Shown piece after piece: positions 44,530 through 62,190 of a stretch of DNA of 64,000 bases. The stretch lies in the NCBI GenBank assembly GCA_010015675.1, contig ML976993.1, positions 168,829-232,828 on the forward strand, given 5' to 3'. The translations under genes were made by a program, and so were the position numbers. Within the stretch, counting starts at the first letter, position 1. The number at the start of each line of letters is the position of its first letter. The notes beneath the pieces are model-generated. The model did not search any database. It saw only the letters and a program-made list of their open reading frames with translations, and was not told where the DNA came from. Source of the DNA: Byssothecium circinans (lineage: Eukaryota; Ascomycota; Dothideomycetes; Pleosporales; Massarinaceae).

Positions 44530-45483
44530 CTATCTCAAACTTCCCAGCTCTTCCATGAGCCCGCACAAAGCCCTCAAAAGCGGTGGCCCATTCCGTCTCT
44601 CAACTCCCGGGTGCGCAGCTTCAAGCAATGCAACACCAGCCTTCATGATGTGTGACGGACTCCTAAGGTCGCAAATAGCTTGTGTTCTCACGGAAGATTG
44701 TCTCGTATTATCTGTAGTAGCCGCACAATTCCGAAAATGCGACATGATGTGCAGACACGGTCGCCCAGCGTTCATGAGAATAAAAGCATCAATACCATGT
44801 TGCGTTTTAAAAGACAAATCGTCGAGAAACAGTGGCTCTGTTGATGAATTTGGAATGGCAGCCTCTGATGGTCCTCGAATCGGTGTCGCGGTTCCCGTCC
44901 GTCTTGCTCGCGCTTTCATCATCATGCTATAAGCCCAGAGAACCATAGTTGCATGATACACCATGAAAGCATCTTGTCCTCTGATTTGAAAAGGTGGTAT
45001 TCTTCTTGCAGCGCAAAGCAATTGACCACCATGCCATACTGCAGTACGAGCTGCCTTGGTCTGACTCCATGGTTGAAGATGGGTGTATGCATTGCGCGCT
45101 TCTTCTTCGCCATACTTGCCAGAAAAACGTGCTATAGTATCGAGGCTGACATGCAAGTTCATATATAAAAACTGATGGACAACGCAGGATATAGCTGGCG
45201 AATCGTCGAGGGAGTATGCGGCGTTGTGGAGGCATTGGTCACTAATCATTGTGTAAGCAAGATATTGTGGAAGGGTTTTCATGAACGTACAGCTTCTGCT
45301 GGCGCGATTGTATCCACAGCTGCGACGATGGATCACTCGTTTGTAGCACAGCAGACTGCTGTGTGTGTTCCCATACTTGCGCGGCAAGGCCATAAAGATG
45401 TACAGATCGCGCCAACTGCACATCTGTTGCAGAAGAGAGGCAGAGTCGAGCAGTTTCATCTTGGAGGAGGCTCTTGAGTGAAT
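44530..45483 (-). pseudogene. 3' half of a split fungal transcription factor
   Basis: C-terminal part of the C2H2/Zn2Cys6 regulator whose 5' half lies at 52827-54971. It begins at the target duplication 45470-45483 and reads SLLQDETARLCLSSATDVQL..VHLYGLAAQVWEH..WIQSRQQKL. The frame then slips by one base near 45282-45290 and continues as MKTLPQYLAYTM..MYLHVSL-type MNLHVSLDTIARFSGKYGEEEARNAY..AVWHGGQLL..AFMVYHATMVLW to the stop at 44530. These are family marks of fungal C2H2 regulators. It has no promoter or DNA-binding domain of its own. The slip and the separation make it a fragment. Confidence 0.8.
45470..45483. repeat. Target-site duplication 1, copy a
   Basis: GCTCTTGAGTGAAT, the reverse complement of 54958-54971. 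It marks the 3' edge of the element insertion in the regulator gene and is now separated from its partner by the inversion. Confidence 0.8.
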
Positions 45484-45638
45484 CAAGAAGGAGCAATCAT
45501 CACCACTAGTACTCATGTGAGTACAGTAGGGTATCAACACAAGGAAAAAACACGATAAGGATAAGGCGCACCGGCCTCAGAACTCGAACGACTTCGGATA
45601 AACGATTACGTAAGCGGAGCGGATTAACCTGCGTCCGA
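45482..45638. repeat. Inverted repeat arm A (157 bp, identical to 54972-55128)
   Basis: Base-for-base identical to the reverse complement of 54972-55128 by direct reading. This is the shared homology in which the inversion recombination most likely took place. Confidence 0.95.
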
Positions 45639-45753
45639 CAGAAAAAAATTCGTGTTGAACCTCAACATTTTGGCAACCATGGTACGAGTGGAGTGACCAC
45701 TGTTGCCTGCTTGGCGCCACCGAGGCCTTTGGCCCACGGCGGACCAGATAAAT
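45484..45753 (-). mobile_element. SINE-like/non-LTR-like element, long copy (270 bp)
   Basis: Element in the hydrolase lineage of the rearrangement. On the minus strand its 3' end (..TCCTTCTTG) is shared with the 155-bp copy at 54972-55126; its 5' 115 bp (45639-45753) are missing there, a 5'-truncation pattern. Flanks: target duplication 1 on the left, duplication 2 (45754-45766) on the right. Internal features: GTACTCA/TGAGTAC and TGTTGA/TCAACA hairpins, runs of seven T and six T on the element strand, no coding frame and no terminal inverted repeats. Absence of a poly-A end is unusual for a SINE or LINE. The class is inference; the element boundaries are set by the duplications. Confidence 0.65.
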
Positions 45754-45766
45754 ACTGCGAACGTAT
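45754..45766. repeat. Target-site duplication 2, copy a
   Basis: ACTGCGAACGTAT, the reverse complement of 55127-55139. It marks the element insertion point inside the hydrolase coding frame. Confidence 0.8.
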
Positions 45767-46770
45767 ATTGGAACGATAAGCGCGCCGATATGACCAAAAT
45801 CGAAGTCCCTGTGTTTATCAGCGGCAGTGACTTCAGTAGTATTCATACTATGGGAGCAGTGCGTGGCTAGATGGAAATACCGCATGATAAGAAGTGGATA
45901 AGGTGGTCTTCGAATCAAGAGTGGTATGAGTTGTACTGTGTTGATCACTCTGACAAGGAGCTTCACAAGTACTTCGACAAGTACCTTAGAGACGTGGACA
46001 ACGATTGGGAAAAGACGCCCAAGGTGCGCTGGTCGGCGCTACAGTTCGGCGATCGCGAGGCCATTGATGACATCGAATTCGCAGACTTTCCCGTCCCAGG
46101 AACGGAGTACCGAGAGCTGCATCTCTCAAGTTCGGGCCTGAGCGAGCAACTTGTTTCTAAAGACGGCATCGTAACGTACAACTCCGAGGACTCAAATTCA
46201 GTTGCTGACTTTACGTACACGTTCCCACAAAAGAGCAGGTTGATCGGACTCCCCAAAGCGGTCTTGTACATGTCGGCGCCCTCACATAACGACCTCAACG
46301 TCTTCGTCATCCTCCGAAAGCGCGACAAGAATGGGAAGCTGTTAATGCACCTATGCTTCCCTTTCTCGGCTATACCGAAGGCATACAAGAGCATTGACGA
46401 TATCCCGGAGAAGGAGAGGGCAAGCTTGAACTTGCATATGGGAAGCGTAGGTGTACTGAGGGCGAGCCACCGAAAATTCGACCTGGAACGATCGATTCAC
46501 CCACAATTTCCTTTCCATCCACATGATGTTGAGGAGAAGATCACACCTGGAGAAGTCGTGAAACTAGAGATTGGAATATGGTCTATGGGCATTGACTTTG
46601 ATGAGGGAGAGTCGATAAGCGTGCAGGTGTCGGGTTCATTCCCGTCTATCGCGGAGTATGCGGCATTCTCCAAGCCGCGACCGGAGGAGGAGAAGAACAA
46701 GGGCGAACATAGGATCCATTGCGGTCCGCAGACGCCCAGTCGAGTGATCCTTCCATTCGTACCATTGTAG
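45754..46770 (+). pseudogene. 3' half of a split CocE/NonD-type hydrolase
   Basis: C-terminal half of the alpha/beta hydrolase whose 5' half is at 55127-55910. The frame runs YWNDKRADMTKIEVPVFISGSDFSSIHTMGAVRG, then TAG at 45868-45870 where the family has Trp (one G-to-A change from TGG), then MEIPHDKKWIRW..EWYELYC and the jelly-roll PepX C-terminal domain (about from LQFGDREAIDDIEFADFPVP) to the stop at 46768-46770. The domain is otherwise intact. It lacks the nucleophile Ser and Asp of the N-half. An ATG-started product from 45871 (299 codons) would be a domain without catalytic residues. Confidence 0.85.
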
Positions 46771-47371
46771 ATAGCCTTCTCAAACAGTGTTCCGTTTTCT
46801 CGCAACATAGTCGACTTCCGTGGTGCAGTGCATTCAGAATGCTGAGCTCCAGTGGTAGCGAAAATTTGGTTAATAGGTTCAAGATGGTAACAGTGCCCAG
46901 TGAGTGCTTTGCTTAGAGTATAAACTGTCAAGACCTCATTAATGCTCAAGATTCTTTTTCCGTGAAGGATTGACTCGCCGAAATTGCGCATGCTGAAAGC
47001 TGACCATTATTATGTGTGGTCGTGATTGGCCATCCTTGTCCACCTTCCGAGCGCTAAAGCCGCCATCTGCTACGCAACATGCCTGTAGACGTACCCCGCA
47101 AACTGGGCAAGGGATTGCCATTCCAATTCCCCGGACCAGATCATGGACCCAAAAACTTGGAGACGGTATGTGGAGAAGGTCCGGGGTCGGCTTGTGTGGG
47201 AATGTTGACAAGGGGAGACTGCCACGATAGTAGGGCCGAGACAACATCGACGTCGTATATGACACGAACAAAACTACGGCCACGGGTTTCATCCCTCATT
47301 CTTTGAGATTCGGCTTTGAACTCTATGCTCTTCCCTTGATCGGACGAGCGGGTTAACTTTTATTTTATTTC
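46771..47371. other. Intergenic, MFS promoter
   Basis: No supported gene. The leader before 47372 contains TTTTATTTTATTT. Confidence 0.5.
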
Positions 47372-49200
47372 ATGGCATCCAACACCTACGAACAAATAAG
47401 TCAGCAACGAGGCGACGATATGGCGATCGAGACGAAAGACTTGAAGTCGACGGAGATGATGGTGGAGCAATATGAGACAATATCGGACGGAGGGGAGGGC
47501 GCAAAGGTAACCCATCAGCCTGCGGCTATGGGCACTGTCACGATTTCAGACTTGGAGGAGATCTTCCTGATTCCTGCTCCGAGCGCTAATCCTCGAGACC
47601 CGTTGAACCTGTCGAAATGGAGGAAGGTTGTATTCATCGTTTTGACCTCGATCTGTGAGTTCATATGGCTACGCCTCGACCGTCTTCTCCTATTCTGACG
47701 ATGAACAGTCTCCAGCCTTGGTCTGTCTCTCGTATCCGGCTTCGGAGGTCTTCTTGGTTTTTATATTCCCATCTACGCTGCCAAAGGTGCGACATACGCC
47801 GATATAACTGCTCTCATGACGTACCCATCTATGTTCATGGGTGTTGGGAACCTTATCTGCATGCCACTCGCTTTATCGATCGGACGGCGCCCCGTGTTTC
47901 TTGGATCGTTGGTGATGCTTATGGCTGCTGCACTCCTGGCGGCATATTCTAAAGACTACAACTGGCATCTGGGAGCACGCATGCTTTTGGGCTTTGCTGC
48001 GGGTCAGAGCGAAGCGCTGGTGCCAATGATGATTCAGGAAATCCATTTTGTTCACGAACGAAGCACTTTTCTGATGTGGCAGTCAGCGGTCCAGACCACG
48101 CTGACCGCCGTCTATGTCATCTGCGCATCTCCTATCGCTGGCGCTATCGGTCCGGGGAATTGGTACATCCTTGGAGCGGGTCTGTGTGGAGCGTGCCTCC
48201 TCTTATCTGTACCATTCGTTCCCGAAAGTCATCACGATCGCTCTCTCTCTTCGTACGGCCAGTTCTCAATCGCCGAAGGAGGTGAAGGCAATAGGTCTAG
48301 GTCCACGGCACCCATGCCTGTGCGTATCTCTGAAAGGCCTGCACTTGATACCAACAAGTACCTCCCGCGAACAATCTGGTCGGACATGCGATTGAAGAAT
48401 GGCAAGATTGACAGGATGGAGGGTTATTATGGCTTCATCGTAAGCTTAATCCACTATTGTCTTTACCTGGCTAGCACTAACGATTCTTAGAACACCTTTC
48501 AAATCTTACTGTTTCCGAATGTCTTCTGGGCATTTTGCTTAAATGGTTTGACAATGTACGTGCCCTCCTCGAGCGATATCTGAACGTTGTCGCTGATACA
48601 GAATGCAGCGGTGTGAACATTGCCATAGGAACTACCTATGGTCACATCACAGCGGCCCCGCCGTATAACTGGCCCGATAGCTCAGCATCCTATGTCAACG
48701 CTGGACAGATCCTTGTCGCCTTTGTCGCCCTTGCCTTGCTAGGGAATGGTTCCGACTTCATCATCAAATGGCGTGCTAAACGCAACGGCGGTGTCCATGA
48801 GCCTGAGAATCGGCTCCTGCTTCTTTGGATTCCGCTTGCGGTTGGCATACTTGCGGCAGTGCTTTACGGTCAAGCTGCTGAACACCCGTTCAAGTATCAT
48901 TCGTTCGTGTATGTTTTCGCCAACGCAGGATACTATTTCGCGTTTGTGGGCGCGAACATCGCTGCCATCACTTACTTGCTCGACTCGTACCCGGCACGTT
49001 CTGGTCCAGTCCTTGTTGTCATCACGGCCTTCCGCGGCTTCATCAGCTTCGGCGTGAGCTATGGTGTTGCGAAATTTATCGACACGGCTGGCTATGACGG
49101 CTCTTTTGGGACATATGCCGGTCTAACGGGCCTCTTCGGATTGCTCGGCATACCCGTTTTCATCTATGGCAAGCGCATCCGCGAGTTCACCGGTCGCTAG
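47372..49200 (+). CDS. MFS transporter (DHA-type, 12-helix)
   Basis: Proton-coupled exporter or importer in the plasma membrane. Exons 47372-47654, 47709-48439, 48491-48555 and 48609-49200 give 556 aa. The last acceptor is the second AG (GCAG at 48605-48608), because only it keeps LTIGVNIAIGTTYG in frame. A hydrophilic N-tail of about 90 residues leads to helix 1. MFS marks: the loop 2-3 element IGRRPVFLGSLVMLM, RMLLGFAAGQSEALVP in helix 4, the central loop with RSRST, and six more helices from LNGLT to IPVFIYGKRIREF. It lies within the inverted segment and appears intact. Substrate unknown; the neighbouring oxygenases suggest a small metabolite. Confidence 0.87.
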
Positions 49201-49925
49201 GCGGTGAAGCATCGGAGCGGGCATCCTTCCATGTCTCATTGAGGCTGTTTCCGTGAAGTTTGTGGATGGTGATTGCCAGAGGTCACTTCATTGTGGGTAT
49301 CGGGGGCGGGGCGCGTGAGGTTTTGGAATCTTAGATGTGTTCTCATTGCTTCGTCGTAGCTGTACTCTCTAGCGTTAGTATCTGCCAATGCGCAAATGTG
49401 ACCATTTTACGTATGTTCCTTGCCGTGCGACGAGAAGACCTCAGCCTTTGTAGGTTGCCTAAGGAAGGCTGTAACTTCCTGAAGGTTGAGCCTTTTCGCG
49501 ACCCTCAAATGCGCTGGACTCAGGTGAATAACCGCACTTGCTCTCCTAAATGAAAATATCGAACCTCTTCTGCGCACATCAGTTGCTGTCCAACCCTAAA
49601 GCCGGTGCTGTGCGCCATGCTTGCTGGAATTTGAGGTTGGTTGTTTCTGGGGGTTGAGCCACGGTCTGCGTATGTTCCTCGACGGCTACCAGCCCTGAGT
49701 CAAACTGCAAATTGGAGTCATGATCCCCGTTGCCGGATAAGGAGATGCCTGGTCCTGGTGTTGGCATCGAAGAAAGAGAAGAAAGAGACCAAGGAATCGA
49801 CTGTGATGCATGGATGATACTTTGCTGACTAAGCCACATGAAAATAAGGGAACGAGCACGAGCCACCGCTCAACATCTAATCTCTCGCGTCTCTATTCAT
49901 ACCTAACTCCATCCAAACTCTCCCT
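49201..49925. other. Convergent 3' region of MFS and PhyH-1
   Basis: A 95-codon frame at 49579-49866 (minus) opens with GTG and lacks motifs, so it is not called. Nothing else is recognised. Confidence 0.45.
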
Positions 49926-51040
49926 CTACGCCTTGATGTAAGGGATGCCGGTTAGCTTGAAGGTGCGCTCGTCCATCACCGGCTTGTTGACGGGCTCAAA
50001 GCGATTGTGCGGGTCATCCTCGCCGTCCCGCTTGGCAACATTCGACCCCGTGTATCGCGCGTTCGGCCAATGTGTGGTGCCTACGTTACGCTCGAAGGCG
50101 TCCTTCTTCCGCAGCAAGTCCTCCTGGCTGGCGTGGGCCACGGGCATGTAGCATGTATACACGCAGAAGCGGGGCTGGGTCGTCCTCGAGCTCAGATTGT
50201 AATGCGGCGTACGGGAGTCCCAAACCAAGAGATCACCTGGGTCTGCACAAACTTTGACCCATTTGCAGCCCTTTCCTTCCAACCACGCCATTCCACGATC
50301 GGTGAATCCATACCACTCTGGCGTCCAGGCAGGGATTCGCGGCTCGTCCTTCATGTCACGATGGAACTCATCTGATAGCAGGTGGCCTTCGGGGCAAACG
50401 ATAAGTCCGCCGTCGTCGGGCCCATTGGGCAGTAGGTTCACTAGGCCCTGAAGACAACGGAAGCCAGGCTTCTCAGGGTCTTGATCCTGGTGTGGCCATG
50501 GCTTGTTGGGAGGGATATCTGTCCGACTACTGGAATTAGCTCGTGGTTGTTTTCTCCCAGATGCCATTCACTTACTTGGGGAACCCAAAATTGATGGCAT
50601 CGAAGGACACCAGAAGATCCTCGGTGTTGTATACCTTCTCAAAAGCTCCGACAACTCCAGGCTCGCCGCGGATTGCCCATGCAAAGTCTTCGTGCGTCAC
50701 GGCATACTGCGAACACATGCCCTTCTCAGTGATGGCAGGGAGCTTGTCTTTATGGACCGTAGATAGATCGTTCCTGTCGAAGCCGAGATTGCTGACAACG
50801 CTGTTAGTTCTGTTTGATTACCTAGTTGGAGACGCACAATCCCTCTAACCAGCTGTACATCTTGTCGGCGTAGCCAAGGGCTCGTTCCTGTGGAATGGCA
50901 CCTTTGATGACAGCATATCCGTCACGCGCGAGGTCATCTCGCCAGTTGCCGTAAGACATGTCGGTGCCATCAGCCTTCATCGCGCTCGTCTGCGTACCCT
51001 TGAGCACCAAAGGCGACGTATGGGTGGTGGTGGCAATCAT
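49926..51040 (-). CDS. PhyH-family Fe(II)/2-oxoglutarate dioxygenase (copy 1)
   Basis: Exons 51040-50838, 50791-50576 and 50526-49926 give 339 aa. Introns GTGCGT..GTCAG and GTAAGT..AGTAG. Non-haem iron facial triad: His152 and Asp154 in WPHQDQDP, distal His248 in DSRTPHYN; a 2-oxoglutarate-binding Arg is plausible at RFCVYTC. Domain start at WRDDLARDGYAVIKGAIP; FDAINFGFP and LVNLLPNGPDDGGLIVCPEG are shared with copy 2 at 56363. The C-terminus HWPNARYTGSNVAKRDG differs. Known relatives act on lipids, halogenated or aromatic small molecules; the substrate here is unknown. It sits inside the inverted segment, adjacent to the FMO. Confidence 0.88.
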
Positions 51041-51542
51041 ATCGGAGTAAGACCTTTGAGTTGACTGAGGAATTCAATGCGGTCCGTAGAGTTTGATAAG
51101 CCAATTGCCAACTGAGCAGACTTGCATGAAATACCTATGCGATCAACTGGCTGTATTGAGACGAAGGATCGGTGGCAACACGGGTGTTCCCCTTGCGATT
51201 GACGACTGCATTATACGCCCACTAATCCCGAACCGCTTCCGAATTACTTACTTAACCCCACCACTTCCGAAGTACCGTTGTCGGGATGAGGAGGGAACTC
51301 GGCCCTATTGCAATAAAAATGCGGCAAGTTACGGCGGATCGCCGCTGCGCGGCTTGATGCATCCTTCTTGATTATGGAGAGGAAGGTATTGGTCCACTGG
51401 AAAGCCTTGTGACTACATCCATATTCTGGAAATCGTTACTTCACAGAAACTCGTTCATACGAATACTCTCACCAATCCTCAAGTCCACATTTCCTCTACT
51501 GTTTTCTTTGCAGCCCTAGCTAATTCTGAGACTCTTCAGAAT
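51041..51542. other. Divergent promoter region (PhyH-1 and FMO)
   Basis: The 502-bp interval separates two divergent cluster genes and is the likely shared control region. No binding site can be named with confidence. Confidence 0.45.
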
Positions 51543-52809
51543 ATGCCGTTCCGGATCATCATCGTGGGCGGAGGTATAGCAGGTACAGCAGCAGCCATAG
51601 CTCTTCGAGGGCCAAATCGCGAAATCACCATTCTCGAACAGTCAAGACTGAACAATGAAATCGGGGCCACCATCTCCCTCCAACCAAATGCAACGCGCAT
51701 TCTTGAGCGCACCTGGGGACTTACCGGTCTCTTGAAAGATGTGAACGGCGTGATCGATCACGGCTTTCGGATCTTTAACGTCGAAGGAAAGATGGTCAAC
51801 GAGATACCACTATTGAGCAAGAATGCATACGAAGCCGATCGCATAATATGGCATCGGCAGGATATACACAATTACCTCAAACAGGCTGCAACCGACTCAC
51901 GCAGAGATGGACCACCGGCTCTTGTACGCACATCTTCACGTGTCACTCGTTGTGATTGTGAGCGTGGGGAAGTGACCTTGGAGAGTGGCGAGACACTGAC
52001 GGCCGAGTAAGTATTGCCCGTGTATGGAATGTATTCGAGGCATATACTAACTTCGTACTCCAACTTTTAGTCTTGTCATTGGTGCAGATGGTATCCATAG
52101 TCGCATTCGATCCTGCGTTCTTGGCAAGGAAGTAACTGCCGTCCCAACTGGTACATCCGCATATCGCCTCATGATGCCATCCCAAATATTGGAAAGCAAA
52201 GTTCCACACTTTACAGACAGGATCAACACGCGAGAACCCTACACTTCAATGATTATGGCACATGACTGTCGACTTATTATGGGACCTGCTCGAGGCGGTG
52301 AACTCTATAGTCTCGTTGGGCTTGTACTCGATCACAGAATGAACGAGGACCCGAATAGCGCACAATCGTGGGTTGCCGAAGGCGATCTGAACAAGATGCT
52401 AGATACATTCACTTCTTTTCCCGATTCGACCAAGGATATGTTCCGACAAGCCGAATCTATTGGATTATGGCAACTCCGCGATCTTGACCCTCTAGAAACA
52501 TGGACGAAAGGGCGAGTGATTTTGATTGGAGATGCGGCGCATGCAATGCTACCCACGCAAGGACAAGGTGCCAGTCAGGCGATCGAGGATGCTGAAGCTC
52601 TCGGTGCTCTCTTTGCTGATCTGGATACTGACGCTCCTGTATCAGAGAGGGACCTTTCGTCCATTTTAAGACGAGTCTTCGACTGCAGACACGAGCGCGC
52701 AAGCTTGGCGGACACAACGCTAGTCATGTCCGCTCCCCACTTCCCGACACCTTGCCCACCCTCAATCTCAATCCATCCAATCGCTCCGAATATGCTGACT
52801 GCGCCTTGA
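51543..52809 (+). CDS. FAD-dependent monooxygenase (salicylate hydroxylase-like)
   Basis: Group A flavoprotein hydroxylase. Exons 51543-52006 and 52071-52809 (intron GTAAGT..TTTAG) give 400 aa. Motifs: Rossmann GGGIAG at residues 9-14, the R-x-D-x-h-region WHRQDIHNYL, the DG motif LVIGADGIHSRIR (about 156-168), and the FAD-ribityl GRVILIGDAAHAMLPTQGQGASQAIED (about 302-328). After RRVFDCRHERASLA the usual family helix is missing and the sequence becomes Pro/Ser-rich to the stop. That suggests a damaged C-terminus or an unrecognised intron. The stop lies only 17 bp before the regulator start. Aromatic hydroxylation is the family expectation; the substrate is unknown. Confidence 0.83.
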
Positions 52810-52826
52810 GAAAGACTGTCAGGGCA

Positions 52827-54971
52827 ATGGGCTCACAAGAGATGCGCTCACCGTCGACATCGGCCGCTAGCCGACCCAAGAAGCGTCAACGCTTCTCGGA
52901 CGGGGAAGCATTGCAATGTCAGGTCTGCTTCCGTTCGTATGATCGTGCCGACCACTTGAACCGACATTTAGACTCTCGTACGCAAGACAGCCGTGATGAT
53001 ACGCACGCTCTGAGAATTTACAGATCGGAACGAGCGACCTTTCCGATGTGAGAAGTGTCCTGCAGCATTCAACCGCCGGTAGGGAACCCGAGAATAGCAT
53101 CGATCTGATCTCAATACTAACATCATAAATCAGAGACCTTCTGTTGCGACACCAAGTAGCGCATGACAAACATGCCGCTGAAGGTCAGGTTGGCCCCAAC
53201 CGTACGGCTGGGAGAGCTGTCAAAGCATGCGATGCTTGTGTTGTTAGTAAAAGTAAAATGTGACAATACGCGGCCTTGTCAGGTAATACCCGCTCCTTTG
53301 TCTTGCCATTTGATATTCTTCGCTGATCCGTAATATGAAGCGATGTCGGAAAAAAGGTTTGCTCTGCAGTACTAGAGCAGGCGGCCCTCGAACAGTATCA
53401 CCCATTTCGCCTGCAGATCGGTCTCACGCGTCTTTTCCAACGCCTCCAGAACCCCAAAGCCCAGTCCCACTTGAAGCGAATCCTTCCGCACAGGCCAGCC
53501 AGGAACTTGGAAGCATCCCTTATGAAAGCGCGGCCGCAGATGCTCAAGCACTGCTCAATTTGTATAACGGAATGCATCCAAGTGAAGGCATTCCATCTTT
53601 TTTCGAACAGATCATGATGCCTGATCTAGATGTAATTGGCTCAGACCCAACTCAGCTGCCACCTACATTGACGACTTGGATGCCAGAGGTAGACTGGCTT
53701 GGAGACATGGACCTTTTCGGAACCGAGTTTGCTCCAGCGATTGATCAGACGTTTGAGACCCAACAAGTGCTGAACGAGTTCTTTTCGTCTGCCCCAGCGC
53801 TCGACTCCACAGCTACAGAAGCGAACGAAGCTTCCAACGCGACTTCACAAGATGATAGTGCAAGAAAGAGACATGCCATCTTTCAACGATCACCGTGGTA
53901 TGTGGATTCGTGATGAGAGTTTTGCAACGCTATATTAATGAGCGGTAAGGCTGTGGGTACCAGACCGCAATCAGCACGCTTTTAGCGAGCACCATGGTCC
54001 GCTTCTTGATGAGCGAGATGTCGATTTAGGCACCTCACCACATGAGCCTTATTCATCGAGCATCACCATCCCTGACCAATTGTCGTTTCAGTCCCGCGAT
54101 AGAATTTTTCAGCTCGTCTCCAAAACCACCCAAAGTCAAGTTGCCATTCCTTCATTCCCATCTGCTGAAACGCTAGACAAACTCATCAAAGTTGGAATTG
54201 CGAAACGAACTGAGACCGACGCCTGGATACACCCTTTCACTTTCTGCAGCGAAACGGCGAGGGTTGAGTTTTTGACCGCGCTTGTTGCTGCAGGGTGCGT
54301 TTGCTTTGGTATTCCATCTGTGAGCAGGACAGGTTTGGTGCTGCAAGAGATTGTCCGAGTAGCGCTTCAGAGGCTAGTACGTCTGTTGTTCGGATAAACT
54401 TGGCCCCTATACTGACTGCTGATAGAACGAAGCTGACAATAGCACCATCCGAGACTTGCAGTATCTTCAAGCTTCTATGATATGGCTCGATATTGGAGCG
54501 TTCTGTGGCTTTAGGAGGAAGATGGAGGTCGCTGAGTCCAACCTGCAACCGCTCGTTACCGCAAGTGCACGTGGCTATTTCTCTAAGATTTTGCTAACGA
54601 TGCATAGGCACTACGTCGCGCAGGCAAGCTGGAGCACGTTGGCTACATCAATGTCACACCGAGCGCTGACGACAGCGAGGAAGTAACAGATCAAAAATGG
54701 CGGCAATGGGTTGAGCAAGAATCTTATAAGCGGCGAGTAACCCCAGTGGAAAAATAAGCCAGACTAACATTCCCCAAGCCTTGTATATCATCTCTACGAA
54801 CACGACCTCAGCATGACAATGGTCAACCACCGAAATCCTCTCATGTCCTACTCTGAACTAACATTAATGCTGCCTGGGCCCCGGAATCTGTGGCTCGCGA
54901 CATCGGCTGAGGAGTGGAAAACACGATGGTTGGCTGCGAGTGACCAGGGCTCCCGATATTCACTCAAGAGC
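52827..54971 (+). pseudogene. 5' half of a split C2H2 + Zn2Cys6 transcription factor
   Basis: Two C2H2 fingers: CQVCFRSYDRADHLNRHLDSH, then after an intron (52978 to about 53023) CEKCPAAFNRR and, after another intron, LLLRHQVAH. Next comes a Zn2Cys6 cluster CDACVVSK.KC..C.RCRKKGLLC, in which one extra A in the runs at 53249-53257 breaks the frame, followed by an intron. The middle region is acidic/Pro-rich (about 53380-53890). The fungal transcription factor domain follows from about 54000 (DRIFQLVSKTT..DAWIHPFTF..LQASMIWLDIGAFCGFRRKME). The frame runs to ..RYSLKS at 54971, where the element and inversion junction end it. Its continuation is at 45470-44530. One splice near 54730 appears to need a GC donor. 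It was probably the cluster regulator. Confidence 0.8.
54958..54971. repeat. Target-site duplication 1, copy b
   Basis: ATTCACTCAAGAGC, partner of 45470-45483 in inverted orientation. It lies inside the coding frame (I/Y-S-L-K-S) of the regulator. Confidence 0.8.
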
Positions 54972-55126
54972 TCGGACGCAGGTTAATCCGCTCCGCTTAC
55001 GTAATCGTTTATCCGAAGTCGTTCGAGTTCTGAGGCCGGTGCGCCTTATCCTTATCGTGTTTTTTCCTTGTGTTGATACCCTACTGTACTCACATGAGTA
55101 CTAGTGGTGATGATTGCTCCTTCTTG
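54972..55126 (+). mobile_element. SINE-like/non-LTR-like element, short copy (155 bp)
   Basis: Shares its whole length with the 3' 155 bp of the element at 45484-45753. Its 5' end (TCGGACGCAGG) is truncated relative to that copy and abuts target duplication 1 on the left; the 3' end (..CCTTCTTG) abuts duplication 2. Being flanked by two different duplications, neither paired locally, shows that it is a recombinant junction copy. Confidence 0.7.
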
Positions 55127-55128
55127 AT
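54972..55128. repeat. Inverted repeat arm B (157 bp, identical to 45482-45638)
   Basis: Exact reverse complement of 45482-45638 by reading. The final AT belongs to both the arm and the target duplications. Confidence 0.95.
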
Positions 55129-55139
55129 ACGTTCGCAGT
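55127..55139. repeat. Target-site duplication 2, copy b
   Basis: Reverse complement of 45754-45766; the hydrolase coding frame breaks here after SPTANV. Confidence 0.8.
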
Positions 55140-55910
55140 GGGCGACCTACGATACATCTCGGCAAAGTCTTCGATGCCGCCTCCGGCAGTATTCGTTTTG
55201 ATGATGAAGTGAGTGATTAAATCGAAATTGGACATGGAAAATACTCCTCCCCGGCAGAACTGCTCTCGGTAGATGTCGCCGGATCCTTCCCAGGGCGCAA
55301 TAGCTGCGAGATGTGGTGGACGGAGCGCAGCAACCAGCCACTGGATGATGGCGAGAGCCGAGTTGCCCGCCATACCAACTTTTCCGTTGCACCATTCCAT
55401 TACAGCGATGGCCTCGATAACATCATAGCAGTCCTCCGCATCTTGAGAACCCATGATGGGAATGCAGCCATCCGAGTTGCCAGTCCCGCGCGAATCCACC
55501 GAGATGATGGCATATCCGCGCGGGCACCAGGTCACTGGATCTAGTCCCTCAAACTTCTCCAGCCCGCTTAGTGCTTCATTGGGAACACAGCAATTCCAAA
55601 CGCAAATGGGCAGCATGGACAAGGCGGAGTATTTCTTGCCGTAGCAAGACCAACTGATTATGGCGGGCAGCTTTTCGTCGGGCTTCGCATCAGCCGGGCG
55701 GTAAAGGTCAGCGTAGAGACGGACGCCATCTCGTACTTTGATTTCGACGTCGTGATCAATTCGGATGTCGGATTCGAGAGGTCGGGCGTTGTATGGATTC
55801 GAACCTTTCTTGAGGACTTCGGTTTTGCCGCGGGTGAAATCCTGATAGTTGTTCACACCAATTTCGGGCTTGGAAACCGGTTTGTAGGCGATCTCGAGTG
55901 GGATTGGCAT
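55127..55910 (-). pseudogene. 5' half of a split CocE/NonD-type hydrolase
   Basis: N-terminal catalytic half of an X-Pro dipeptidyl-peptidase/cocaine esterase-type alpha/beta hydrolase. From MPIPLEIAYKPV (ATG 55910; an ATG 15 codons upstream is also open) it shows VEIKVRDGVRLYADLYRP, AIISWSCYGK, GYAIISVDSRGTGNSDG, the nucleophile element GMAGNSALAIIQW and ALRPPHLAAIAPWEG. The frame ends at the element junction. With 45767-46770 joined, 596 codons result, the family length, still with one internal TAG. Alone it lacks the catalytic His, part of the Asp region and the jelly-roll domain. Confidence 0.85.
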
Positions 55911-56362: not shown

Positions 56363-57443
56363 ATGGCACCTCACGCTGAAGAGCCAAAACCTGATACTGG
56401 TATCGACCTTATCCAGCACGACGGCACAGTCTATGGCGACTGGCGCGACGAGTTCCACCGCAACGGATGCGCCATCGTCAAGAACGTGATAAGTCCCGAA
56501 CGCGCGGAATATTACAAGCAAAAGCAAATCGAATGGCTTCAATCCTTCGGTCTCGGCTTCGACCCCAAAGATGAATCGACATGGACACAAGAGCACCTCC
56601 CCGTCAGCTTCAAAGGCGGCATGTACTTTGCCTATTCCAGCACACATGAGAAGTTCGTCTGGGAAGCCCGCACGGAGCCCAAGATCATCGAAACCTTCAG
56701 CAAGCTCTGGGGTACGGATGAACTTTTGGTGTCTTTTGATGGTATGAACATTACGCTGCCGCGACAGAAGGATCTAACGTGGAGTCCGTGGCCGCATTGC
56801 GATCAGAGTCCTGCGAGGAAGGGCATGCAGTGTGTGCAAGGATTGGTGAACTTTCAGCCCAATGGCCCAGATGATGGTGGCTTGATCTTGATGAAGGGAA
56901 GCTCCAAGCTGTTTGATGATTTCTTCAGGGAGACTAGGGAGCAGGATGATCATGCGGATAAGCCGCCGGAGGAGAACTTCAAGGACTTGTTCATCTTCAA
57001 GGAGAGCGATGTTAAGTGGTTCGAGGACCATGGCTGCACTTTGGAGAAGGTGAACCTCGAGCCTGGAGACCTGGTAAGTTTCGACTTTCTTACATTACTT
57101 CGCCATGATTTTGGTTGTAGAGTGAGCATATGTTAACATACCAAAGGTTCTCTGGGACTCTCGCACCTTACACTACGCCTGCTTTCCCAAGGGCGACCGC
57201 ATTCGCCATGTACAATACGTTTGCATGACGCCAGCCAAGTTCGCGAAGAAGGAGGATCTCGAGCTCAAGGCGAACATGTTCAAGACATGGCAGGGAACAA
57301 CACACTGGCCGCACTGCAACATTCGCAAGCAAGGTCCACCGATGAGAGATGGAAAGGAATGTCCCCTGAACAGGACAGAACCGTTAGAGAAGCCCGAGAT
57401 TACGGACCGGTTGCTTCAATTAGCTGCTGTGAAGGCTTATTGA
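56363..57443 (+). CDS. PhyH-family Fe(II)/2-oxoglutarate dioxygenase (copy 2)
   Basis: Exons 56363-57073 and 57147-57443 (intron GTAAGT..CAAAG) give 335 aa. Iron ligands His145 and Asp147 in WPHCDQSP and His246 in DSRTLHYA. Shared plan with copy 1: WRDEFHRNGCAIVKNVISPERAEYY, LLVSFDGMNITLP, LVNFQPNGPDDGGLILMKGS and THWPHCNIRKQG at the end. Clear paralogue of the gene at 49926, but diverged, with a different intron pattern. It lies just outside the inverted segment, so the inversion changed its distance and orientation relative to the other cluster genes. It appears intact. Confidence 0.9.
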
Positions 57444-59197: not shown

Positions 59198-62190
59198 TTA
59201 GCCTCCCACCCTAAACCCATGCGCAGCAGAAACCCACTCCTGATCCAGGAGCGCATTCACCCTTGTCAATATGCGATTTCCGCCTAATAGCGCTTGGAAA
59301 CCCTCCACTCTTTCCTCTGCAGACATCATAAGGAAGCTCTGTAACCCAAACGTCGACACAGTTCCCGATGGACCTCTCGTAGTTGGACTCAACGAATACT
59401 CAACTTGATTTCTGAGCCAGGAGATGATGGCTTGGGCGGCGAAGGCGTTGAGACCCGCACGGCGAAGAAAGAGTTCCCACTACTCTTTGTCAGCTTGAGG
59501 AAATCATCATCTAGTGGCCATACTCACATTCGTTACGTCAGCAAGCGGCTTGATGTCGCCAATATCTTTCGATCCGTATGGTAGTCCAAAGTTCGCCATT
59601 TCGATAATAACAGACCGCGAAAGCGCTTGGTCGCCGCCGGGCACAAACCGCACCAGCACATCTGCCTCCATCTTGCCCGAAAATTTCTCAAACGCAGTGA
59701 TCGCTTCCAAATCACGAGTATCAACAGGCCGGCCAGTCCCACGTTCCTCCATCTCGCGACTTAGTCCCTCACTGACCATGACGACTAGTCTCTCATATCT
59801 ATGTTGAAGTGATATAATCCGATATTTAAGCTCCGAGTGATCGGGCTGCCCGGGAAGTGCGCGTTGTTTTATTTGTTGTAGAGTAGCGAGGATCAAGCCC
59901 GTCGAGGGAGATAGCAACAGATCAGCCTCCCCGGCTGTTGAGTGTGGTAGATCAAAGTCGCGACTCACGAATTCTGCATGTGGATATAGTTTCTCGATCT
60001 TTCCTGTCAGGTGTCGCTTCTGTAGAAGCGCAGATGAAATGATAAATGAACACTGGGGAAGATTTTCCGGAATCGACGGCAGCTTTGGCAGTGACGGCGG
60101 TGTGACTGCTTTCTGAAGACGATTTGAGCCTGTGCACGAGCTGGTTGATAGTGGACGGATGACAGGTGTCTTTGAAGTAGTTGGGAAATGTTGAGAGGAG
60201 GTCGCTTGATTGAGATTTTCTTTGCGTGGTTTCCCCTCCATTCCCTGCATAGCCATGAAGTGGTCCATAGCGTTGTTTGCAGAAAATATACCCCCAAACA
60301 TGACACTCTCGTCAAGTTCCTTGGCCTTTTTTGAAGTGTGTGACTGCTTTCGCTCACGCTTGGGTGGCTTGCCGTGGCGTTGGGGAGCGGTCGGTTTCAC
60401 CGGCACTCTGTTCTTCCAGTGAGGACTCTCAGCACTCTCCTGGATCGAGAGTGGGAGTCCATGAGCCTGAGAAGGCTCGATAGCGTGGGGCCGTCGCTTT
60501 CGTTCACTTTCAGCGAGGGCCTCGTCTATCTCTAACTTTCGCTTCCTGATAAGAGCATCGACATCCCCACGCTCTTGCAACTCCAAAAGTTCTAGCTCCT
60601 CGTCAGCCTCCTCGTTCTCTTCAAGCAAGCGGAGTCCATCTCTTTTCCAGATGCCAGTCGAACTTGTCACGATCTCATCCATAGTTGATGCCAAGAGTAT
60701 GTTGTTGAGGTTTCCCTCGCCATGGAGTTTTTCCTCGATGGTGACTTGCACCGATTGCAGAGGGAATGGGACTGAGGGTAAGTCCCTCTCGAGTGCCTGA
60801 ATCCCATGCCATGAAGAAGCCCCAAGTTTCCGTTTGATGTGAAGTATGAACTTGCTCTGAGCTTGCAACTCGGATTTGTTAAGCCCAGCATCTTCACGGC
60901 TTCGTTTGTAGACATCCCAAGGAGCCACTGGTAGTGTGAAGTCAACCTTGGGTACTTCGACACGCTTCGTTGTATCGGCCTCTGAAAGATTCTCGTGCTC
61001 CGCTTCCCAATTCACCTCCTCAGCAATGGGCTCAACTTCCTTATAGAAACCTGCGAAGTCATCCTCGGAATTTAGCACGTCCTCTCCGCTCTCATGTACT
61101 GATGGTAATTCATAGATATGATGTGGAATGTCCGCAAATGTTACCGTTTTCAGCTTCTTCGAGTCGGACCCGGAAAACATTGGTGGCGTGAGGGGGGTCT
61201 CGACCTTGAGCTCATCCACTTTACGTTTGAGTATTGACTTTGGCTGATCAGGATTCGAGCTGAGTGGTACTCCTTCAGCTATATCGAACAACATCTCATC
61301 ACTACAGTTCGAGCAGTTGGTCACAAAAACATCCGCGCCCATGATCTGGTCCTCGAGTGCTTTGGCTTCTGCGGCGGTCGAATTGGAATCTTCCGAAAGG
61401 ATTTCAAGTTGGTTCGCAGGCGATGAAGGGATATAAGGCGCCATTGGAGGCGAGAGAGGGAGCAGTGGAGGTGTAATAGGCTCAACCGCTGTATTCTGCA
61501 ACGATCAGTAGAAGCTTTTCGAAGAGTTTACCCACTCACTCGCTTGTATCCTAAAGCCTCCTCTTGTATCGCCTCGCCATCAAGGACGGTATACACATCC
61601 TGGACAGCATCCTGCAGATACAGCAAGTGCTCCCTCTTCATCTCAAGCCTCGAACTCTCCGCCTTTGCCCATTCGTCCTTTTGCGCCGGATAAGCCCAAT
61701 ACTTCTCCGGCCATTGCATCCCCTCATCATTTGCTTCATCAACAGGCTCGAGAGGTATCCGAAGGTCAGTAAGATCAGGCGTTTCGGTGCTGCCGAAACT
61801 CAACATATCGAGCTCGTTGTCCGTTCGCAGAACCGGTACTTCCAATTTCAGATCTCGAATGCGTCCTCTTTTATCCCAAGTCGCATCATGCTTAACGGGC
61901 GGCTCTGCGAAAGAGAAAACTGATCTCAGCAGCAATGCGCTTTGGTTGCTAATCGCAATCGGTTCCTTCGTTAGTTCGTGCGCTCGGTTAGTGGGGATAG
62001 GAGCATTTGTCGGATCGCGAAGATCCTGATCAATGGCCTCGGCGGACGGAGGCGTGATGAGGCCATTTGGCACTCGTTCCAGAGTGTAGTCCTCGCACAG
62101 GCCGTGGAAGCGTGCGTATTCCAGCACGCTCGGCTCGGGCTCTGGCGGCTGCTCTTCGCGCAGGTCATCGAGACCAAGGTCGAGCTCCAT
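59198..62190 (-). CDS. Large conserved fungal protein, possibly XPF-like/HhH
   Basis: Exons 62190-61540, 61495-59528 and 59479-59198; 966 aa. The N-terminal two thirds are low-complexity and charged, with LEVPVLRTDNELDMLSFGS, SILKRKVDELKVETPLTPP and VDFTLPVAPWD. The C-terminal about 300 residues look folded: CSFIISSALLQKRHL, EADLLLSPSTGLILATLQQIKQRALPG, RYERLVVMVSEG, AFEKFSGKMEADVLVRFVPGGD, then LRRAGLNAFAAQAIISWL, which resembles a helix-hairpin-helix. The layout recalls inactive XPF-family proteins such as Zip2/SHOC1, a meiotic crossover factor; this is inference only. The start is the Met before ELDLGLDDL; an ATG 17 codons upstream is open too. Confidence 0.7.

What the first reader, a model, noticed from the sequence alone, without database searches (positions are those of the whole stretch)
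45470..55139. A ~9.3-kb inversion with swapped target-site duplications
Arms 45482-45638 and 54972-55128 are identical and inverted. At each junction the element is flanked by halves of two different duplications (GCTCTTGAGTGAAT and ACTGCGAACGTAT); each duplication's partner lies at the other junction. That is the exact signature of recombination between two inverted copies of the same inserted element. Few rearrangements can be read this completely from one genome.
Basis: seen in the sequence. Interest (0 to 1): 0.9.

Follow-up and report, generated by a model that had tools for sequence, protein, structure and literature searches.

The report
Small inversion made by jumping-gene copies
In a fungal chromosome, two short copies of the same jumping element had landed in two neighbouring genes and then recombined, flipping about 9 kb between them and splitting both genes; the event is of a known kind, but it can be read here base by base and suggests how fungal chromosomes get shuffled.

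Summary
The arms 45482-45638 and 54972-55128 are identical (157/157) and inverted, and each is flanked by halves of two different duplications whose partners lie at the other junction. The arms are copies of a dispersed, 5'-truncated non-LTR-type retroelement (50 places found in a 48.4-Mb genome; the count is a lower bound). 38 of 49 copies examined carry their own target duplication; the window pair lack their own and match each other. Decisive new evidence: both breakpoints lie inside genes. Six of six uninterrupted CocE/NonD-hydrolase homologues and six of six zinc-finger regulator homologues split exactly at the two element junctions, on the strands that one inversion predicts. Best explanation: one retroelement copy in the regulator, one in the hydrolase, in opposite orientation, then recombination between them. 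This is a retrotransposon recombination-mediated inversion, known in primates, with the same signature in Drosophila. New here are a clean example from this fungal group and the suggestion that copies too short for repeat-induced point mutation supply the substrate. Assembly error at the 157-bp repeat cannot be excluded without reads.

The parts
44533..45481 (-). C-terminal part of a zinc-finger (C2H2-type by homologue names) transcription regulator gene
   Evidence: tblastn of 6 of 6 uninterrupted homologues: their C parts (from residue 384-614, depending on the homologue) match 45481 (45487 in one) down to 44533 or 44536
45470..45483 (-). Target-site duplication A (ATTCACTCAAGAGC), copy at the left junction
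   Evidence: exact partner at 54958-54971; only two occurrences in the window
45482..45753 (-). Retroelement copy at the left junction, 272 bp (element reads on the minus strand; its constant 3' end at 45482), flanked by A on one side and B on the other
   Evidence: 40 matches scored genome-wide; boundaries and duplications
45754..45766 (-). Target-site duplication B (ATACGTTCGCAGT), copy at the left junction
   Evidence: exact partner at 55127-55139
45754..46770 (+). C-terminal part of a CocE/NonD-type hydrolase gene (PepX_C domain), with an in-frame TAG at 45868-45870
   Evidence: homologue residues 258/259 to 594/595 (255-591 in P0126)
47372..49200 (+). MFS transporter gene region, inside the inverted segment
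   Evidence: MFS_1 on ORF 47816-48490; the neighbouring ORFs 47372-47698 and 48535-49200 gave no Pfam match
49926..50567 (-). PhyH-type dioxygenase ORF, inside the inverted segment
   Evidence: PF05721
51543..52809 (+). FAD monooxygenase gene region, inside the inverted segment
   Evidence: FAD/NAD-binding families on 51543-52010, FAD_binding_3 on 52171-52809
52839..54971 (+). N-terminal part of the regulator gene, ending at the element; matched in several pieces and frames (introns or decay, not resolved)
   Evidence: 6 of 6 homologues end at 54965-54971; five start at 53491-53614, one (P0244) at 52839; weak zinc-finger match below the family cut-off
54958..54971 (+). Target-site duplication A, copy at the right junction
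54972..55128 (+). Retroelement copy at the right junction, 157 bp (constant 3' end at 55128), flanked by A on one side and B on the other
55127..55139 (+). Target-site duplication B, copy at the right junction
55131..55910 (-). N-terminal part of the CocE/NonD-type hydrolase gene (Peptidase_S15 domain), ending at the element
   Evidence: 6 of 6 homologues: residues 1 to 260/261 (1-256 in P0126) at 86-89% identity; PF02129

Best explanation
A short, 5'-truncated copy (157 bp) of a non-LTR-type retroelement inserted in a zinc-finger regulator gene (site A), and a longer copy (272 bp) inserted in opposite orientation in a CocE/NonD hydrolase gene about 9.3 kb away (site B), each making its own 13-14-bp target duplication (read from the sequence). 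The two copies then recombined within their 157 bp of shared sequence, inverting the segment between them without visible loss or gain of a base (shown by the exact duplications and by homologue matches that abut at both sites; the crossover itself is inferred). The result is two copies with swapped duplications and two genes split across the inversion. The original order was regulator(-), FMO(-), PhyH(+), MFS(-), hydrolase(-) (inferred). The copies were short enough to escape the C-to-T mutation, probably repeat-induced point mutation, that has marked many longer copies of the family, so they had stayed near-identical (inferred).
For: Arms identical and inverted; two exact duplications, swapped. 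Dispersed family with constant 3' end, staggered 5' ends and own duplications: 38 of 49 copies have their own; the window pair score 8 and 6 for their own and 13 and 14 for each other's; the best cross-match of any other copy is 12, apart from L025/L026, which lie in one duplicated flank (14). Six of six hydrolase and six of six regulator homologues split exactly at the junctions with the strands one inversion predicts. No other close copy of either gene found in the assembly. Both arms share two C-to-T departures from the majority sequence that no other lightly mutated copy has together (2 of 34; six of the nine heavily mutated copies also have T at both), as expected if recombination homogenised them or if they came from one template. 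In one distant paralogous cluster of the same genome the hydrolase and regulator lie on one strand, as deduced for the state before inversion. The lack of loss or gain argues against most forms of aberrant transposition (passages of PMC2775673), which in any case concern DNA transposons.
Against: No reads were available, so a false join at the 157-bp repeat would look the same. Gene order in relatives was not seen; in Paraphaeosphaeria sporulosa the two gene tags are consecutive, so the three genes between them here may not lie there. 157 bp is short for crossover in a filamentous fungus (general knowledge). The crossover point cannot be placed because the arms are identical. 11 of 49 copies, the window pair among them, lack a clear duplication of their own, and in 6 of the 38 counted (L027, L028, L036, L038, L039, L044) the score does not exceed the best of 48 decoy flanks, although the match lies at or within a few bases of the element's edge.
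Confidence: 0.85

Rival explanations
1. Assembly artefact: the two insertions are real and ordinary, each with its own duplication, but the assembler crossed from one copy to the other at the identical 157 bp, giving a false inversion.
For: A false path through a 157-bp inverted repeat gives exactly this picture. Some fetched stretches of the assembly hold runs of N, which may be gaps or withheld sequence.
Against: Only weak: the window has no N, and an inverted pair of copies 84.7 kb apart on contig C1 (L018, L024) keeps its own duplications.
Confidence: 0.12
2. Inversion by replication template switching or end joining at the repeats, not by a reciprocal crossover.
For: 157 bp of homology is short for crossover in filamentous fungi (general knowledge), and the exchange point is not visible.
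Against: Nothing visibly lost or gained at either junction, and the exchange lies inside the homology; end joining would usually leave scars (general knowledge).
Confidence: 0.08
3. No inversion: two insertions with duplications that match by chance, in genes that were always arranged like this.
For: None found.
Against: Flush 13- and 14-bp reciprocal matches; both genes are split with halves on opposite strands while the homologues tested are uninterrupted.
Confidence: 0.005

Closest known systems
Retrotransposon recombination-mediated inversions (L1 and Alu) between human and chimpanzee (PMC2603318; passages seen)
   Same: Inverted non-LTR copies recombine, elements become chimeric, duplications no longer match within an element, genome size usually unchanged; 49 loci, about half in genes.
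   Different: Here a fungal element, 157 bp of homology, and both genes at the breakpoints split by insertion and inversion.
Drosophila Galileo inversion 2z3 (PMC2775673; passages seen)
   Same: Two copies in opposite orientation, exchanged target duplications, chimeric copies, no loss or gain.
   Different: A DNA transposon with 7-bp duplications; the non-inverted arrangement was sequenced there, not here.
TE-bordered inversions in the Leptosphaeria maculans complex, Pleosporales (PMC4210507; passages seen)
   Same: Order Pleosporales, to which our closest named protein hits belong; 30 inversions of 1.3-355 kb, median 9.5 kb, 70% bordered by transposable elements.
   Different: In the passages seen the link is proximity (82 bp on average) and the families named are DTM_Sahana and RLx_Ayoly; no swapped duplication is mentioned there.
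Inversions underlying mesosynteny in Dothideomycetes (PMC3516569; section 8 read, other passages seen)
   Same: Intrachromosomal inversions in the same class of fungi.
   Different: That study links breakpoints to simple repeats and calls the exact mechanism unknown.
Non-LTR retroelements (LINE/SINE) inserted by target-primed reverse transcription (general knowledge)
   Same: Constant 3' end, 5' truncation, 5' inverted segments, duplications of variable length, many starting AT.
   Different: Parent copies of about 1.14-1.19 kb with a fixed 5' end and no readable ORF seen; no encoding partner found; no poly-A tail.

Membership tests
Retrotransposon recombination-mediated inversion | Two copies of one element in opposite orientation at the two ends of the segment | tested here: met
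Retrotransposon recombination-mediated inversion | Target duplications exchanged between the two copies | tested here: met
   only such pair among the 49 copies examined
Retrotransposon recombination-mediated inversion | Flanks fit together without loss or gain in the unbroken order | tested here: met
   6 of 6 homologues of each of two genes abut at the junctions; flanks were not joined
Retrotransposon recombination-mediated inversion | Ancestral arrangement seen in a relative or another isolate | not testable with these tools
   no relatives of this genome are held; only protein names and contig lengths were seen
Non-LTR retroelement | Constant 3' end with variable 5' truncation | tested here: met
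   49 of 51 alignments reach the 3' end; 5' ends range from q65 to beyond q272
Non-LTR retroelement | Target duplications of variable length | tested here: met
   38 of 49 copies; clear in four of the five long copies with both ends found
Non-LTR retroelement | Own or partner reverse transcriptase/endonuclease with the same 3' end | tested here: inconclusive
   150 reverse-transcriptase places scored; only the 4 fetched loci of about 3.5 kb were compared with the element, none matched; an endonuclease family gave one partial hit
SINE (polymerase III head) | tRNA- or 5S-like head with internal promoter | tested here: inconclusive
   no Rfam match at E<=1 in 45400-45800, no tRNA in the window; a B-box-like stretch is read by eye only

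The most novel reading that the evidence does not exclude
In fungi with repeat-induced point mutation, long repeats are mutated apart and cannot recombine, but truncated retroelement copies below the length threshold stay near-identical; such copies in opposite orientation would then be a main source of the small inversions that scramble gene order (mesosynteny) in Dothideomycetes.
Probability: 0.15. Interest if true: 0.75.

Novelty: new member of a known kind. Interest (0 to 1): 0.45.

Why it matters
Fungi of this class keep genes on the same chromosome but shuffle their order, and PMC3516569 states that the exact mechanism is unknown, with simple repeats over-represented at breakpoints. This locus shows one small inversion whose cause can be read at base level: two short retroelement copies recombined. 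Its size (9.3 kb) is close to the 9.5-kb median in Leptosphaeria (PMC4210507). The swapped-duplication audit used here needs only one genome, so it could count such inversions across many fungi and test whether copies too short for repeat-induced point mutation are the main substrate. The locus also shows two neighbouring genes interrupted by insertion and then scrambled.

Tried and rejected
Rfam search of the left element: nothing. tRNA search of the window: none. Reverse-transcriptase search: 150 places scored, of which 4 came back as loci of about 3.5 kb and were compared with the element; none of the 4 matched, which does not exclude a partner with a longer 3' part or among the other places; the one long readable frame (L052) looks like an LTR-type polymerase by eye. 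Endonuclease family PF14529: one partial hit, not followed. Readable ORFs in long copies: none of 90 aa or more in L054, and three overlapping repetitive ones in L055 outside the element; nothing that looked element-coded by eye in the seven copies. Polymerase-III SINE idea for the short copies: set aside by eye, since runs of T lie inside the element. A structural reason for the pile-up of 5' ends at q156-164: the RNA strand of the 272-bp copy folds better than shuffles (z -3.45), but no hairpin that would clearly stop a polymerase there was identified. Decay of the regulator by frameshifts: not claimed, because introns explain the frame changes about as well. A first claim that the arms' two shared changes are unique among all 43 copies was dropped. 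A tree of the copies was not built.
Full report
WHAT WAS CHECKED. The two arms are as described: 157 nt, fully complementary, 9333 nt apart, and the only inverted repeat of 30 nt or more listed for the 64-kb window (exact seed 14). The left copy runs on to 45753, so it is 272 bp long. Each flank carries one half of two exact duplications. ATTCACTCAAGAGC lies at 54958-54971 (+) and 45470-45483 (-); ATACGTTCGCAGT lies at 55127-55139 (+) and 45754-45766 (-). Neither occurs elsewhere in the window.

WHERE IT IS FROM. The window lies in a 48.4-Mb genome of 109 contigs. A protein from 59507-61501 has its best named match at 61% identity in Massarina eburnea; most other named hits belong, by general knowledge, to Pleosporales (117 hits listed). 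The species was not identified.

WHAT THE ARMS ARE. The own-genome search scored 40 of 62 first-look candidates for the 272-bp copy; a second search, with 79 bases of its 3' end (40 of 60 scored), added ten places, 50 in all and a lower bound. I fetched the flanks of the 48 places outside the window and analysed 51 alignments (50 places plus a second piece of L013), of which 49 reach the 3' end. Read on the minus strand of the left copy, these 49 share a 3' end (CTTCTTGAT or CTTCTTTGATA with small variants), while 5' ends vary from q65 to beyond q272; 27 of 51 alignments stop within q156-164. Of the 43 copies that reach q150 or further, 11 of 19 with a 5-base deletion and 16 of 24 without it have this stop, so it recurs in both subfamilies. 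Longer copies run on upstream to different points. Of twelve long copies fetched by their 5' end, five also had the 3' end: L076, L077, L078 and L079 are 1140-1189 bp long and L080, whose 3' part is doubled, 1475 bp. Four of these five (L077-L080) have a clear duplication (scores 11-16) and L076 a weaker one (9); in the other seven no 3' end was found within the 2 kb fetched. Most of these five lie in AT-rich blocks. L013 holds an inverted 5' segment and L014 a 5' hairpin inside their own duplications. These are features of insertion by target-primed reverse transcription (general knowledge). No encoding partner was found.

THE DUPLICATION AUDIT. Every upstream flank (up to 600 nt) was compared with the 3' flanks of all 49 copies. 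38 of 49 copies match their own with a score of 9 or more at or within a few bases of the edge of the aligned part or, in six long copies, at a point 124-297 nt further upstream where the insertion begins (37 of the 38 score 10 or more). In 6 of the 38 (L027, L028, L036, L038, L039, L044) the score does not exceed the best decoy. Eleven have none by this measure: the two window copies, both L015 copies (one scores 9 but not at its edge), L011, L041, L063, L066, L067, L068 and L070. The window copies score 8 and 6 against their own and 13 and 14 against each other's, flush with the element. The highest cross-match elsewhere is 12, apart from L025/L026, which share a duplicated flank (14). So the swap is a property of this pair, not of the family.

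THE DECISIVE TEST. Both breakpoints fall inside genes. Six CocE/NonD-type hydrolases chosen from the 120 listed of 484 hits (P0121, P0122, P0123, P0124, P0126, P0129; 591-595 aa) were compared with the window in six frames. In all six the first 256-261 residues match 55910 (55898 in one) down to 55131 or 55128 on the minus strand, and the rest matches 45754 or 45757 to 46767 on the plus strand, overlapping by two to four residues, the duplication. Six regulators chosen from 16 hits (P0240, P0241, P0243, P0244, P0245, P0246; 682-908 aa) do the same at the other site: their N part ends at 54965-54971 on the plus strand and their C part begins at 45481 (45487 in one) on the minus strand. One inversion restores the order and strand of both genes. 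The regulator's N part is matched in several pieces and frames; introns and decay were not told apart. PDB comparison agrees for the hydrolase: N part to residues 38-242 and C part to 287-437 and 453-559 of the same chain, 3ib3. The own-genome searches found no other close copy of either gene: other matches are at 45% identity or less for the hydrolase and 33% or less for the regulator.

WHICH COPY WAS WHERE. The 5' part of each copy stays with its own flank, so the 157-bp copy had inserted in the regulator (site A) and the 272-bp copy in the hydrolase (site B). The deduced original order is regulator(-), FMO(-), PhyH(+), MFS(-), hydrolase(-). In P. sporulosa the regulator and hydrolase bear consecutive locus tags (DPSP01_009048 and _009049), though the longest contigs listed for the two differ; in Aaosphaeria arxii and Boeremia exigua the two are listed on contigs of equal length. 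This supports linkage, not the exact order. A distant paralogous cluster on contig C3 has hydrolase, regulator and FMO on one strand, with no match to the window's MFS or PhyH; it fits the original orientation but is a single distant case.

AGE AND STATE. The arms are one of four identical pairs among 903 (43 copies); two of the other three are duplicated flanks and the third is L023/L024. Both arms share two C-to-T departures from the majority sequence; among the 34 lightly mutated copies only they have both, while six of nine heavily mutated ones also have T at both. The hydrolase carries an in-frame stop at 45868-45870 but otherwise aligns without gaps to five of the six homologues and with a one-residue gap to P0124, so its loss looks young (inference).

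REPEAT-INDUCED POINT MUTATION. C-to-T and G-to-A changes rise with the length of the insertion (Spearman 0.52, p 0.0004) while other changes do not (-0.08, p 0.60), over 43 copies. Means are 1.9 in 28 copies up to 170 bp (half of these changes in L066 alone), 10.6 in 9 copies of 171-300 bp and 7.5 in 6 copies above 300 bp; 1 of 28 short and 8 of 15 longer copies have nine or more. Exceptions go both ways: L066 and L019 are short but mutated, L009, L013 and L014 are long and little mutated, and several lengths are lower bounds. A threshold of about 400 bp, or 1 kb for one arrangement, is quoted from Neurospora work in passages of PMC5555474. That short copies escape and so remain recombination substrates is an inference.

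COMPARISON. Target duplications, with BLAT and PCR, were used to read 49 human/chimpanzee inversions caused by L1 and Alu (PMC2603318, passages); exchanged duplications and chimeric copies to read a Galileo inversion in Drosophila (PMC2775673, passages). In Leptosphaeria, 30 inversions of median 9.5 kb were found, 70% bordered by transposable elements (PMC4210507, passages). PMC3516569 (section 8 and passages) holds inversions responsible for mesosynteny and the exact mechanism unknown. PMC4112212 (passages) reports ectopic recombination among elements of Cochliobolus by recombination-detection programs. A 2026 study of 43 long inversions in Sphaerulina musiva (PMC12778737, passages) names no such mechanism in the passages seen. 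In the listings of my searches I saw no fungal inversion with swapped duplications, but only listings, beginnings of abstracts and the named passages were seen, lists were capped, and the library holds open-access papers only.

VERDICT. Observation confirmed, interpretation supported at 0.85; the chief doubt is assembly error (0.12). Novelty: new member of a known kind.

Noticed in passing
L076-L080 (own genome); window 45482-45753: The parent element is about 1.14-1.19 kb with fixed ends and no readable ORF seen; its 5' half also occurs with other 3' parts (L054, L055, L081-L086), some of which look interrupted by other elements.
   Followed up: partly
51 alignments, q156-164: 27 of 51 alignments have their 5' end within nine bases, in both subfamilies, next to a run of T; cause unknown.
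   Followed up: partly
L015 (own genome C38:243985-244712): Two copies lie head to head about 0.23 kb apart, with no clear duplication on either.
   Followed up: partly
L025/L026 and L038/L039: Element copies with matching flanks on different contigs: segmental duplications or near-telomere copies.
   Followed up: no
L087/L088 (own genome C3:1.661-1.669 Mb): A paralogous cluster with a CocE-like hydrolase, a related regulator and an FMO.
   Followed up: partly
window 45868-45870: In-frame stop in the hydrolase's C part, apart from the split.
   Followed up: partly
window 56363-57136: A second PhyH-type ORF just outside the inversion, next to the hydrolase's N part.
   Followed up: no
L057 (own genome C12:84000-93900): A 1.6-kb stretch repeated at 99.2% identity in an AT-rich block, with a run of N between the copies.
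   Followed up: no
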